A stretch of 33,010 nucleotides of DNA from Lentisphaerota bacterium (GTDB lineage Bacteria; Verrucomicrobiota; Kiritimatiellia; RFP12; UBA1067), in assembly GCA_012838435.1 (NCBI GenBank), contig DUPH01000389.1, positions 1 through 33,010 on the forward strand, given 5' to 3'. This document shows positions 10,649-21,608 of the stretch, piece after piece (positions within the stretch are counted from its first letter, which is position 1; each line of letters begins with the position of its first letter). Under the pieces are notes generated by a model. The model ran no database searches and had not been told where the DNA came from. It was given only the letters and a program-made list of their open reading frames with translations. A program made the translations under genes and the position numbers.

Positions 10649-10787
10649 GAGGCTCCTGCCAGACCCTTTGCTTGCAGGTGTAGGTGTGGCACGGGCATCT
10701 TGCCCGTGTTTCATGGGTGTGGCACGGGCATCTTGCCCGTGTTTCATGGGCGGGACGCCCATGCCACGAAGGGTTTTGCAAGACCTC
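10649..10787. repeat. Foldback repeat, copy 1 (139 bp, internal 33-bp duplication)
   Basis: The right end, GGTTTTGCAAGACCTC at 10772-10787, matches the terminal inverted repeat of the copy at 21508-21608. The left end (10649-10666) is a degenerate version. The core holds two stems, ACGGGCA/TGCCCGT and CATGGGCG/CGCCCATG. A 33-bp unit is tandemly duplicated (10684-10716, 10717-10749), which copy 2 lacks. It lies in the 363-bp gap upstream of the surface-protein gene; the rest of that gap holds the AACGTGAAATC pair and ribosome sites only. Translation of this DNA yields spurious peptides (RASCPCFMGGTPMPR), so an in-frame N-terminal extension of the next gene is rejected. Confidence 0.7.
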
Positions 10788-18160: not shown

Positions 18161-18688
18161 ATGATACCATCCCGAACCCCGTCCTCTCCCATCCGAGTTC
18201 TCGGTATCGACACCTCGTTACGTTCAACCGGCGTGGGCGTTCTGGATGCGGTGGGGTCGCGTCTGATGCCGGTCTATTTCGGCACCGTGAAAAATCCGGC
18301 GGGCCGACCTTTGTCAGCCTGCCTGTTGCACTTGCAGGAGAGCATCGAAAAGCTGATCCAAGAACATGAGCCACAGGCGGTCGCCATTGAAGGTGTCTTT
18401 TACGCGAAGAACGTGAAAACGATGCTGATCCTTTCCCATGCGCGCGGCGCGATCATTGCGCAGTGTGCCCGCATGGGCATTCCGGTTTACGAATACGAGC
18501 CGCGCCGCGTCAAGCTGGCGGTTGTCGGCACCGGCGGCGCACAAAAAGAGCAGGTCCAGAAGATGGTCAAAACGCTGCTCAACCTCCCCGAAGTGCCGCA
18601 GAACGACGCCGCCGACGCCCTCGCGCTGGCCATCACCCACCTGCACAACCGTTCGCCGCTCGCCGCCCTTTCAGCTTCGCCGATTTGA
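18161..18688 (+). CDS. ruvC: Holliday junction resolvase RuvC
   Basis: The 175-residue endonuclease resolves Holliday junctions with RuvAB. The four catalytic acidic residues are in place: D17 (LGIDTSL), E77 (AIEGVFYAKN), and D149 and D152 (NDAADALALAITH). The basic EYEPRRVKLAVVG segment that contacts DNA is also present. The length matches the family (about 173). It stands alone here: ruvA and ruvB are not in the window. The start ATG 18161 has only a weak ribosome site. Its 3' flank carries degenerate repeats and then the IS110 element, which leaves the gene intact. Confidence 0.94.
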   Translation: MIPSRTPSSPIRVLGIDTSLRSTGVGVLDAVGSRLMPVYFGTVKNPAGRPLSACLLHLQESIEKLIQEHEPQAVAIEGVFYAKNVKTMLILSHARGAIIAQCARMGIPVYEYEPRRVKLAVVGTGGAQKEQVQKMVKTLLNLPEVPQNDAADALALAITHLHNRSPLAALSASPI

Positions 18689-18924
18689 TAGGTAAAAGGT
18701 TCTGCGTTAAACAAACCCGAACCATGAAACACATGAAACTTCATGAAAATTGAAGGCTTCCCTTTGCGTTCTCTGCGTTCTCTGCGGCTATTTATGCGGC
18801 CATGCCTATTCGCGACAATCCGCGTCATTCGCGGTTAAAACCCGCAGCCATGCCCCCCCGAAAAACCTCTGTGCCCTCTGTGCTCTCTGTGGTTCCAAAA
18901 ACCCGAGCACAGCCACCCAAAAAT
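18689..18924. repeat. Degenerate low-complexity intergenic repeats
   Basis: No gene is seen. The stretch contains runs such as GCGTTCTCTGCGTTCTCTG (about 18766-18784), a CATGAAAC-type run (18722-18745) and CTCTGTGCCCTCTGTGCTC (about 18868-18886). The CATGAAAC run is the complement of the GGTTTCAT array at 1165-1204. They resemble intergenic simple repeats spread through verrucomicrobia-like genomes. Confidence 0.5.
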
Positions 18925-18961
18925 CTGTTGGTAATGTGGGTGGCGTTCTGAGAAGAACCGT

Positions 18962-19183
18962 GTATACGGGGCTTTAAAGACTGCCGCACGTTGAGGTATG
19001 ATGCGAAGCAGCAGGTGGTCTTGGTAACCCACTTGCTGTCCGCATGGGAGACGCTCGAAGATTACATTGGGCTCACTGCCCGCCAATCTGTTTGAGCGCC
19101 GACGGAAACCACCTGCTTGGGGCGAAAGACCCCGTATACTTGTATGCTTCATGCAGACCCGTCTGCCCCAACGTGCGACAGCG
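18962..19183 (+). ncRNA. Candidate IS110 bridge RNA (left-end non-coding region)
   Basis: Three consecutive stem-loops are visible. SL1 is 19001-19045 (ATGCG/CGCAT outer, CAGCAGGTGG/CCACTTGCTG inner). SL2 is 19052-19098: CGCTC/GAGCG outer stem, then a 9/6-nt internal loop, then ATTGG/CCAAT and GGGC/GCCC. SL3 is 19101-19163 (GACGG/CCGTC around a GGGG/CCCC hairpin). In SL2 the 5' loop side AGATTACA (19059-19066) is exactly complementary to the right terminus 20541-20548. The 3' side AATCTGTT (19085-19092) equals the left terminus 18922-18929. This is what a donor-binding loop should look like. Longer competing pairings exist (18962-18971 with 19130-19139; 18985-18993 with 19169-19177). RNA ends are approximate, and target guides were not found. 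Confidence 0.65.
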
Positions 19184-19201
19184 CCATACAGGATAAAGGA
19201 A

Positions 19202-20398
19202 ATGACCGACACAGCACAAGAGACAATTCTGGTCGGGATGGACGCGCACAGCGAAAAGATCTCCCTGTGCGTCACCCGGTGGCGGCTCGGCTCGGACCCC
19301 GTCGTCATCAAGAACATCACGACCGACCTCGACTCGCTCGAAAACACCTACAGGAAGCAGGTCCCGGCGGGGGCGCTGACCGTGCTGGAGGCGTCCACGA
19401 ACGCCTTCTCCATCGTCCGCCGCCTCGGGGCCGTCGGGCAGCGCGCGGAGGTGCTCGCCTCCGACACGCTCGCGGGGCGGGCCCGCTCCGACCGGGTCAA
19501 CGACCGCATCGACGCGCAGAACCTCGCGTTCGCCCACGCCCGGGGCGGGACGCGCCGCGTCCACGTCCCCTCCCCGCGCCACCAGCACTGGCGCGACATC
19601 TTCTTCGGCCACCGCAACGCCGTGAAGGACTCGACGCGCTGGTCCAACCGCATCTGGGCCTTCTGCAGCGGCCACGGGCTGAAGCTGCCCAGGGAGTCGT
19701 TCCACAGGAAGGCCGATGCCGTGCGCGCGGAGGTGGCCGGCTACGGCTGGACGCAGGAGGAGAAGTTCCACCTCGAGACGCTCCTGCTCGAATACGAGCA
19801 CAGCATGGATCTGCGCGGCCGCTACGAGAAGCTCATCGCACGCATCGTCTCGGAAACGCCCGGGATGACGAGGCTGATGCAGATGCTCGGCGTGCGCTTC
19901 ATCGTCGCCTTCGCCCTGTTCACCTTCGTCGAGGACGCGTCCCGCTTCGCGAACCCCAAGAAGCTGGTCAGCTACGTCGGCCTCAACCCGTCCGTCGCGG
20001 AAAGCGGGAAGGCCGGGGGGCGGCGCAAGCTCAGCAGCCATGGACGGCCCGACCTCAAGGCGCTCATGGTCGAGGCGGCGAAGAGCTTCCTGCGCCACGG
20101 CAAAGACGACATGGCGAAGTGGGCGTACCGCAAGATCGCCTCCGGGAAGCCCGCCAACGTCGTCACCTGCGCCGTGGCCCGGAAAATGGTCGTCCGCGCC
20201 TGGCACATCCTGATGGGCCACCCGGTCCCCGACCGGAAGGACGAGAAGTCCTTCCGCCGCAAGCTCGCCAAGCTCGCCACCGCCGTCGGGCGCGAACACC
20301 TCGCCGCGCTGGGCTACAAAAAGCCCGCCGAGTTCGTCGAGGCGCTCCACTCGCAGGTCTATCCCCCGGAAAGTTCCGCGCCGGCAGCCCAATCCTGA
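19202..20398 (+). CDS. IS110-family DEDD transposase
   Basis: The 398-residue recombinase has an N-terminal RuvC-like DEDD domain: D14 (VGMDAHSEK), E63 (VLEASTN), and D101 and D104 in NDRIDAQNLA. After a coiled central region comes the C-terminal Transposase_20 domain (about 215-300: PGMTRLMQMLGV, ANPKKLVSYVGLNPSV, RRKLSSHGRPDLK). S277 or S278 is the likely catalytic serine. The start ATG 19202 follows AGGA at 19190-19193; the upstream in-frame extension runs through the RNA region and is rejected. The family recombines a circular intermediate into RNA-specified targets. It looks intact, with no internal stops. It is longer than IS621-type enzymes (about 326 residues). Confidence 0.92.
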   Translation: MTDTAQETILVGMDAHSEKISLCVTRWRLGSDPVVIKNITTDLDSLENTYRKQVPAGALTVLEASTNAFSIVRRLGAVGQRAEVLASDTLAGRARSDRVNDRIDAQNLAFAHARGGTRRVHVPSPRHQHWRDIFFGHRNAVKDSTRWSNRIWAFCSGHGLKLPRESFHRKADAVRAEVAGYGWTQEEKFHLETLLLEYEHSMDLRGRYEKLIARIVSETPGMTRLMQMLGVRFIVAFALFTFVEDASRFANPKKLVSYVGLNPSVAESGKAGGRRKLSSHGRPDLKALMVEAAKSFLRHGKDDMAKWAYRKIASGKPANVVTCAVARKMVVRAWHILMGHPVPDRKDEKSFRRKLAKLATAVGREHLAALGYKKPAEFVEALHSQVYPPESSAPAAQS

Positions 20399-20593
20399 AA
20401 AAGGCGGGCTCCCGAACCGCACAGGCGCGCCTTTTGGCGTTTGCCCGCCCGGAGGCGCGTCTGTCCACAATCCACTGTCAAAGAAAAAGAAATGGACAAA
20501 ACCGACGAAAGCGACAAAGGGACTTGACTACCCACATACTTGTAATCTGTGGATAGAAAAAATCCCGCGCACTGCCAAGACAAACTAATAGGT

Positions 20594-21478
20594 TCACTCA
20601 ACATTCTGCACCTGCTCGCGTGCGGCTTCGAGTCCGGCTTTGAATGCGATCACAAGGCGCGAAATCTCCGCGTCATTGGCCTTTGATCCGGTTGTGTTGA
20701 TCTCGCGGAACATCTCTTGGCAGATGAAGTCCAGCGTACGCCCGCACGGTCCGCCAGTGTCAAAGACCTTGGTGACCTGCCCGAAGTGGCTGGCGAGTCG
20801 CGTCAGCTCTTCACTCACGTCGCAGCGATCGGCGAAAACCGCCACCTCGCGCGCGATCAAGGCGGGGTCTACCAATTGACCGTCGCCGAGCAACTCGGCC
20901 AGTCGCCGCTCCAGCATCGCCTTGTAGGCGATCGGCACCGCCGGTGCCAACTCCGCAATCTCACGGCTCAACACTTCGAGCGCGGTAAAACGCTCACGCA
21001 GATCCCGCTCCAACGCGCCGCCTTCGCGCAGCCGCATCGCCTCCAGATTCTCCAGAGCGGCCTGCACCGCCCGCTCCACCAGCGGCCAGACCTCAAGCGG
21101 ATCGTCCGGCAACACGCGCGGGCGCAGCAGGTCCGGCAGGCGCAGCAACGCGGAGGCTGTCAGGTCATCAGTGAGCCCCAGTGCCTGCGCCGCAGCGCGT
21201 ACTGCGTCGATCTGCGCCGTGAGGTGCGCAAGGTCCAGCGTATCAGCAGCACCGGCCTGCTCGGCCGCCGACACCGTCACCGATCCCTTCACGTACCCCC
21301 GCGTCACACGCGTACGCACCAGCGCCTGAATCTTGGCGTCGAGGCTTGTCAGTTCACGCGGCAATGAAACCGAACAGTCGAACTGCTTGCGGTTGACCGC
21401 GCTCAACTCGACCACCACCTTCACAGCCCCCTCACTCGCCTCGCCGCGACCGAACCCCGTCATACTTTTTATCGCCAC
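20594..21478 (-). CDS. yicC: YicC family endoribonuclease
   Basis: The 294-residue protein matches the YicC/YloC family: N-terminal KSMTGFGRGE, central NRKQFDCSV and LPRELTSLD, C-terminal FDTGGPCGRTLDFICQEMFREINTTGSKAND with the conserved acidic residues. Family members are cytoplasmic endoribonucleases. The GTG at 21478 was chosen because it gives the canonical start (MAIKSMTGF) and lies 11 nt after GAGGAG; the ATG at 21463 would remove the conserved N-terminus, and a longer frame runs through a repeat. It ends 46 bp from the IS110 right end and is intact. It is probably in the same direction as, but not tightly coupled to, the upstream membrane-protein gene. Confidence 0.88.
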   Translation of the reverse strand: MAIKSMTGFGRGEASEGAVKVVVELSAVNRKQFDCSVSLPRELTSLDAKIQALVRTRVTRGYVKGSVTVSAAEQAGAADTLDLAHLTAQIDAVRAAAQALGLTDDLTASALLRLPDLLRPRVLPDDPLEVWPLVERAVQAALENLEAMRLREGGALERDLRERFTALEVLSREIAELAPAVPIAYKAMLERRLAELLGDGQLVDPALIAREVAVFADRCDVSEELTRLASHFGQVTKVFDTGGPCGRTLDFICQEMFREINTTGSKANDAEISRLVIAFKAGLEAAREQVQNVE

Positions 21479-21507
21479 TTTTCTGCCCACTCCTCTTCTT
21501 TTCTCTG

Positions 21508-21608
21508 GAGGGTCTTGCAAAACCCCTTGCCTACAGGTGTGGCACGGGCATCTTGCCCGTGTTTCATGGGCGGGACGCCCATGCCACGAGAGGTTTTGCA
21601 AGAGCCTC
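21508..21608. repeat. Foldback repeat, copy 2 (101 bp) with 17-bp terminal inverted repeats
   Basis: GAGGGTCTTGCAAAACC (21508-21524) is inverted at 21592-21608 with one mismatch; the inner 12 bp are perfect. The interior holds the stems ACGGGCA/TGCCCGT and CATGGGCG/CGCCCATG, and a GTGGCA/TGCCAC pair encloses both. The whole unit can fold back on itself. It is a shorter relative of the repeat at 10649-10787 and separates yicC from the membrane-protein gene. It resembles a REP/MITE-type non-autonomous element. Confidence 0.75.

What the first reader, a model, noticed from the sequence alone, without database searches (positions are those of the whole stretch)
18925..20548. IS110 element with a readable bridge-RNA donor-binding loop
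Seen: SL2 (19052-19098) is a stem with a 9/6-nt internal loop. Its 5' side, AGATTACA (19059-19066), is exactly complementary to the right terminus 20541-20548. Its 3' side, AATCTGTT (19085-19092), equals the left terminus 18922-18929. Both are centred on CT. Known: IS110/IS621 bridge RNAs carry donor guides (LDG, RDG) that pair with opposite strands of the donor, with a CT core. Inference: this is an intact, reprogrammable-type recombinase and guide RNA in a PVC-like host, with a longer transposase (398 residues) than IS621. It is not clear which loop holds the target guides, so the architecture may differ.
Basis: partly seen in the sequence, partly recalled or inferred. Interest (0 to 1): 0.8.

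Follow-up and report, generated by a model that had tools for sequence, protein, structure and literature searches.

The report
Repeat-targeting transposon with reversed guide RNA

Summary
The sequence matches reported at 19059-19066/20541-20548 and 19085-19092/18922-18929 are real, and the element is an apparently intact IS110-family element with an upstream structured RNA. The matched "termini", however, are mostly host DNA: a sister genome holds this locus without the element, the joined flank AATC-TG-TAATCTGTGG occurs uninterrupted twice elsewhere in the host, and 13 right ends and 8 left ends of one relative show where element sequence stops. So SL2 is a target-binding loop, not a donor-binding loop, and the core is TG, not CT. 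Across 22 related elements the loop's 3' arm equals the left target; in 11 of 11 its 5' arm is complementary to the right target. No shuffle reached these scores. A separate donor guide, ATACT-TG at 19136-19142, matches the right element end in 11 of 11 families; with the 5' guide it predicted right ends in another genome before they were seen. Guide order is opposite to IS621 and like IS1111/IS4321, as are the sub-terminal inverted repeats, yet the RNA lies upstream as in IS110, and the transposase forms its own clade. Verdict: new variant of a known kind. No transcript or activity was measured.

The parts
18928..20540 (+). the insertion element without its flanking TG cores
   Evidence: sister genome lacks it; ends fixed by comparison with the multi-copy relative in G463
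18922..18925 (+). left target AATC (host DNA)
   Evidence: part of a dispersed host repeat; present in the empty site; the corresponding bases vary between copies in G463
18926..18927 (+). TG core at left joint
   Evidence: TG precedes the element in all 22 left joints used in the test
18928..18936 (+). right-donor end TTGGTAATG; overlaps the weak -10 TAATGT (18932-18937) of the predicted circle-junction promoter
   Evidence: conserved in relatives; TTGACT-17-TAATGT when the ends are joined through one TG
18934..18941 (+). left sub-terminal inverted repeat ATGTGGGT, 6 nt inside the core
   Evidence: inverted repeats match their own partner across 11 elements, 0 of 50,000 shuffles
18973..19002 (+). 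candidate internal sigma-70-like promoter TTTAAA-18-TATGAT
   Evidence: only promoter-like site in 18850-20650, 0.2 expected; similar sequence in close relatives, absent in distant ones
18981..18993 (+). 5' half of outer stem CTGCCGCACGTTG
   Evidence: complement of 19169-19181; complementarity of the outer flanks holds element by element, 0 of 50,000 shuffles
19009..19156 (+). conserved guide RNA core
   Evidence: covariance model R1; hits in 20 of 346 genomes of the class
   Evidence: helices 3 and 4 of the model covary
19059..19066 (+). right-target guide AGATTA plus core CA; pairs with top strand TG-TAATCT
   Evidence: 60 of 66 positions in 11 elements, 0 of 200,000 shuffles
19085..19092 (+). 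left-target guide AATC, core TG, 2-nt handshake-like segment TT
   Evidence: last four target positions match in 15, 21, 21, 22 of 22 elements; the two nt after the core equal the element's first two in 18 of 22
19136..19142 (+). left-donor guide ATACT-TG
   Evidence: ATACT equals the element's right end; so in 11 of 11 families, six sequence types, 55 of 55 positions
19169..19181 (+). 3' half of outer stem CAACGTGCGACAG
   Evidence: complement of 18981-18993
19202..20398 (+). transposase, 398 aa, DEDD plus Ser
   Evidence: Pfam Transposase_20 8.7e-17; NCBIfam NF033542 6.4e-50; D14 E63 D101 D104 S268 align with IS621 D11 E60 D102 D105 S241
20524..20529 (+). TTGACT, -35 of the predicted junction promoter
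   Evidence: TTGA 17-18 nt from a -10-like hexamer in the 11 reconstructed junctions; -10 matches weak
20530..20537 (+). right sub-terminal inverted repeat ACCCACAT, 3 nt inside the core
20536..20540 (+). left-donor end ATACT
   Evidence: matches the donor guide at 19136-19140
20541..20542 (+). TG core at right joint
   Evidence: TG in 8, CG in 3 of 11 right joints
20543..20549 (+). right target TAATCTG (host DNA)
   Evidence: TAATCTGTGGATAG present in the sister genome without the element

Best explanation
An apparently functional IS110-family element whose upstream RNA guides insertion into a short dispersed host repeat. The two arms of SL2 read the target: the 5' arm pairs with core plus right target on the top strand, the 3' arm with left target plus core on the bottom strand. 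Two nucleotides after the 3' core match the incoming element end, like the handshake guides of IS621. A second segment (19136-19142) reads the element's right end in the circular form. The transposase presumably exchanges strands at the TG core between the circle junction ACATACT-TG-TTGGTAATG and the target AATC-TG-TAATCT. Shown by comparison: ends, core, target guides, donor guide, RNA structure. Inferred: transcription, circle formation, strand order, and protein recognition of the other donor half (TTGGTAATG). The guide order is IS1111-like although the RNA lies upstream.
For: Element absent from the orthologous locus of a sister genome. Exact joined target uninterrupted at two other host sites, control 0. 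Guide/target matches follow the element: left target 95 identities against 41.6 for shuffled pairs, 0 of 100,000; right target 60 of 66 against 23.6, 0 of 200,000; donor guide 55 of 55, 0 of 100,000; handshake 18 of 22, 1 of 100,000. Forward predictions: the G463 right end CCACATGCC-TG-CAATC, written down from its RNA and left repeat, gave 15 sites with 0-2 mismatches, 13 of them right ends with identical upstream sequence; the one apparent failure (L029) has a duplicated right end, and the outer copy reads the predicted CG-TAGCCG exactly. RNA structure covaries. Catalytic residues intact. Controls: IS621 has the opposite guide order, IS4321 the same order.
Against: No transcript, circle or recombination was observed. 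No guide for the right-donor half was found. The sister genome's site carries 12 bp more of the same repeat (CGTAATCTGTGC), so it is not letter for letter the site that the window's element entered. The core's first base is T or C at right joints and does not always agree with the guide. The host holds only one full copy. The anchors (TG core) were set by eye before the shuffles, although the same anchors were kept in the shuffles.
Confidence: 0.88

Rival explanations
1. One reading: SL2 is a donor-binding loop that pairs with the element's own termini, with a CT core.
For: Both arms match sequence at the two joints of the element; the last two nucleotides of the 3' arm match do lie in the element itself.
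Against: The matched bases are host sequence: empty site, uninterrupted joined target, variable flanks of identical copies. A donor guide is found elsewhere in the RNA. CT is not conserved at the joints of relatives; TG (or CG at some right joints) is.
Confidence: 0.04
2. The matches act at DNA level (binding sites copied from target into element, or recombination scars) and no guide RNA is involved.
For: No RNA was measured. The ends also carry inverted repeats that follow the element.
Against: The matching segments lie in the two arms of an internal loop of a covarying RNA fold, an architecture shown experimentally to be a guide RNA in IS1111 and IS110 elements (PMC11187229, PMC11208160).
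Confidence: 0.04
3. The window copy is a dead remnant that keeps readable guides from past activity.
For: A single full copy in the host and one left-end remnant on another contig.
Against: Open 398-codon frame, all five catalytic residues, intact RNA fold and both ends. A relative in G463 has at least 13 insertions with identical ends.
Confidence: 0.15

Closest known systems
IS1111 group / seekRNA (ISEc11, IS4321, IS5075; PMC11187229)
   Same: Sub-terminal inverted repeats with 6 nt outside them on the left and 3 nt on the right; top-strand guide 5' of the bottom-strand guide; target-binding loop built as stem, guide, hairpin, guide, stem. The IS4321 locus read in the same way gives the same order.
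   Different: RNA upstream of the transposase gene instead of downstream; transposase 398 aa instead of 330-350; separate clade in the tree.
IS110 group / IS621 bridge RNA (PMC11208160, PMC11208158)
   Same: RNA in the left end upstream of the transposase gene; target guides and a donor guide; handshake-like nucleotides; DEDD plus Ser active site.
   Different: Guide order and strand use reversed (IS621 checked); TG core instead of CT; 8-bp sub-terminal inverted repeats instead of 2-3 bp; transposase about 70 residues longer; no right-donor guide found.
IS elements that enter REP or other dispersed repeats (IS621, ISPa11)
   Same: Insertion into a short dispersed host repeat.
   Different: The repeat here is an AATCTG-type repeat of this PVC-like host; relatives are programmed for other sequences, some of them dispersed repeats too.

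Membership tests
IS110 family (DEDD RNA-guided transposases) | DEDD RuvC-like catalytic residues and C-terminal serine | tested here: met
   D14, E63, D101, D104, S268 aligned to IS621; NF033542 above its cut-off; Transposase_20 above cut-off, DEDD_Tnp_IS110 below its cut-off
IS110 family (DEDD RNA-guided transposases) | Non-coding end with an RNA carrying guides for the target | tested here: met
   by comparative sequence evidence:
IS110 family (DEDD RNA-guided transposases) | Circular intermediate and RNA-dependent recombination | not testable with these tools
   junction predicted only
IS110 group in the narrow sense (IS621 type) | Long non-coding region with RNA upstream of the transposase gene | tested here: met
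   RNA core at 19009-19156, gene from 19202
IS110 group in the narrow sense (IS621 type) | 5' loop arm pairs with bottom strand, 3' arm with top strand | tested here: not met
   order is reversed in the elements tested; IS621 control reads as published
IS1111 group | Sub-terminal inverted repeats with about 7/3 or 6/3 outer nucleotides | tested here: met
   ATGTGGGT / ACCCACAT, 6 and 3 nt from the cores; 6-9 bp longest exact match in relatives
IS1111 group | Top-strand guide 5' of bottom-strand guide | tested here: met
IS1111 group | RNA downstream of the transposase gene | tested here: not met
   RNA is upstream in the window and in relatives with an adjoining gene; a few exceptions within IS1111 are reported (PMC11187229)
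IS1111 group | Transposase in the IS1111 clade, 330-350 aa | tested here: inconclusive
   398 aa; window clade supported 98/97 and apart from IS4321/IS5075, but deep branches are unresolved and only a few references were included
IS621-type donor-binding loop | Guides for both halves of the donor | tested here: inconclusive
   left-donor guide met; no right-donor guide found by eye

The most novel reading that the evidence does not exclude
A third lineage of bridge-RNA elements in PVC-like bacteria that combines IS1111 geometry (reversed guides, sub-terminal inverted repeats) with an upstream IS110-type RNA, reads only one donor half by RNA, and leaves the other to the protein plus a two-nucleotide handshake. 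Published work says the RNA's location closely predicts the IS110/IS1111 split (PMC11208160); this lineage would show that location and strand geometry are separable.
Probability: 0.5. Interest if true: 0.6.

Novelty: new variant of a known kind. Interest (0 to 1): 0.5.

Why it matters
The strand geometry of guide RNAs in this family has been tied to where the RNA sits in the element. A coherent set of more than 20 elements that breaks this link gives a natural test of what fixes the order of strand exchange, and its guides can be read off directly. The lineage also offers a longer recombinase with a TG core and clear natural reprogramming (copies in one genome with different right-target guides), useful for comparison with IS621. 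In this lineage the guides can be read from sequence alone well enough to predict element ends before they are seen.

Tried and rejected
Viral contigs: no relative found. Rfam: no family matched. Donor-loop reading of SL2: rejected, see rivals. CT core: rejected, because relatives share TG (CG at some right joints). Right-donor guide: reverse complements of TTGGTAATG and of its variants in L022, L025, L029 and G463 were looked for by eye in the RNA and in the upstream part of the left end; nothing that follows the element was found. SL1 hairpin loop as a donor guide: rejected, its GGTAA does not change with the element's right-donor end. L029 as counter-example: resolved by its duplicated right end. 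AlphaFold2 with a two-row alignment: mean pLDDT 42, not used. Outer stem (18981-18993 with 19169-19181): complementarity follows the element, but its role is unclear; the internal promoter-like site lies across it, so a transcript from there would lack the 5' half.

Full report
What is there. The window (G000:C286) holds an IS110-family element at 18928-20540, inserted between ruvC (18161-18688) and a yicC-like gene (20594-21601, minus strand). The transposase is 398 aa. It matches NCBIfam NF033542, 'IS110 family RNA-guided transposase' (E 6.4e-50), and keeps the five residues that form the composite active site in IS621: D14, E63, D101, D104, S268 (IS621 residues from PMC11208158). The host has one full copy and one left-end remnant on another contig, also preceded by AAAAATCTG.

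The loop. A covariance model built from ten relatives finds the RNA in 13 of 388 genomes drawn from the phylum and 20 of 346 of the class, with distant members in another class. In 18 aligned sequences 94.6% of cells pair, 21 of 38 pairs show changes on both sides (10.4 in shuffles), and sliding the partners destroys the signal. That alignment was fitted to the structure, so the counts lean towards it.

Which side of the joint is host. In the sister genome G002 the same intergenic region is present without the element and reads AAAAAAATCTGCGTAATCTGTGCTAATCTGTGGATAG. TAATCTGTGGATAG and AAAAATCTG are therefore host repeat sequence. The sister site has 12 bp more of the repeat than the window's joined flanks, so a shorter variant was probably the actual target; exactly that variant, AATCTGTAATCTGTGG, is present uninterrupted at two other host places, with none in the control. 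The left flank is itself part of a dispersed repeat with some 40 partial matches in the genome.

Copies with identical element sequence. G463 carries at least eight left ends and 13 right ends of one relative. Left flanks read ..ATCAG-TG or ..ATCCG-TG before TCGGTAATGTGG. Right ends read ..TTGACAGACCACATGCC and are followed by TG-TAATCCGTGG, TG-CAATCCGTGA, TG-TTATCCGTGA or TG-TAATCCGCGG and then by unrelated host sequence. The right end had been predicted before it was seen: the RNA gave donor guide ATGCC-TG and right-target guide GGATTG-CA, and the left inverted repeat gave CCACAT. The resulting 16-mer CCACATGCCTGCAATC had one exact, twelve one-mismatch and two two-mismatch matches; 13 of these 15 are right ends with the same upstream sequence, eleven of them with T for C at the first target position, which would be an rG:dT pair. 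The other two (L098, L110) are not element ends.

Statistics. For 22 elements the seven bases before the core at the left joint were compared with the seven bases before TG in the loop's 3' arm: 95 identities against a shuffled mean of 41.6, never reached in 100,000 shuffles; matches concentrate in the last four positions (15, 21, 21, 22 of 22). For 11 elements the first six right-target bases were compared with the reverse complement of the 5' arm: 60 of 66, shuffled mean 23.6, never reached in 200,000. The donor guide equals the right element end in 55 of 55 positions over 11 families and six sequence types (0 of 100,000). The two bases after the core in the 3' arm equal the element's first two in 18 of 22 (1 of 100,000). 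The strings were read off by eye with TG as anchor, and the left-joint and loop strings were checked to occur in the loci; the shuffles keep the anchors.

Geometry. In the IS621 locus fetched here the 5' arm resembles the left target (ATCGGGCCT against ATCAGGCCT) and the 3' arm complements the right target (CGTAG), as published (PMC11208160). In the IS4321 locus, an IS1111-type element, the downstream region has AAAACGGAAA, complementary to the right target, followed by TATTTTC with identity to the target. The window family follows the IS4321 order, which is the order reported for IS1111 seekRNAs (PMC11187229). It also has sub-terminal inverted repeats (ATGTGGGT/ACCCACAT, 6 and 3 nt from the cores) that match their own partner across 11 elements (0 of 50,000 shuffles), as in IS1111 (7/3 or 6/3 extensions, PMC11187229). 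But the RNA is upstream, as in IS110, and the transposases form their own clade (98/97) apart from IS621, IS4321/IS5075 and ISEc45, with deep branches unresolved.

How it most likely works (inferred). Ends joined through one TG give TTGACT-17-TAATGT in the window and TTGA at 17-18 nt from a -10-like hexamer in the 11 reconstructed junctions; the -10 matches are weak. Transcription from the circle would yield RNA and transposase message, as proposed for relatives (PMC11187229). The RNA reads the target with SL2 and the right element end with 19136-19142. The right-donor half, GGTAATG or GGTATG in most relatives, is conserved and has no visible guide, so the protein probably reads it. The handshake-like pair is on the bottom strand, so the order of strand exchange may be mirrored relative to IS621.

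Natural reprogramming. Copies in one genome differ in the 5' guide while sharing, or nearly sharing, the 3' guide: L030 and L084 in G091, L031 and L144 in G082.

Limits. No transcript, circle or activity was measured. Genomes are MAGs without names. Published surveys mention a few IS1111 members with upstream regions and a deep IS110 branch with inverted repeats (PMC11187229), so single members of this lineage may already be listed without their guides having been read.

Noticed in passing
window 10683-10783 and 21508-21603: Palindromic repeat of about 95 bp (GTGTGGCACGGGCATCTTGCCCGTGTTTCATGGGCGGGACGCCCATGCCACGA...) with dozens of places at about 90-99% identity in the host and in the sister genome G002; it overlaps the listed start of the yicC-like ORF.
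   Followed up: partly
window 18800-18927: Dispersed host repeat family (AATCTGCGTAATCTGTG / CTCTGTGCCCTCTGTG types) with some 40 partial matches genome-wide; it supplies the element's target.
   Followed up: partly
L020:1499-1533 (G000:C97): Solo left end of about 33 bp of the same element, again preceded by AAAAATCTG, with no transposase beside it.
   Followed up: partly
L029 (G056:C64): Element whose right part (3' end of the transposase gene plus right end) is tandemly duplicated; the outer right end carries the predicted target.
   Followed up: yes
L141 (G011:C130) and L074 (G110:C70): Left end plus guide RNA apparently without a full transposase gene behind it; possibly truncated or non-autonomous copies.
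   Followed up: no
L030/L084 (G091) and L031/L144 (G082): Copies in one genome with different right-target guides, that is, natural reprogramming.
   Followed up: partly
window 19009-19116: The 5' strand GCAGGTGG can pair either with CCACTTGC (local hairpin) or with CCACCTGC further on; both options seem kept in relatives, which may mean a conformational switch.
   Followed up: no
L021: The record is titled Candidatus Neomarinimicrobiota but appears to be the same contig as G138:C175, which the genome set places in the window's class.
   Followed up: no
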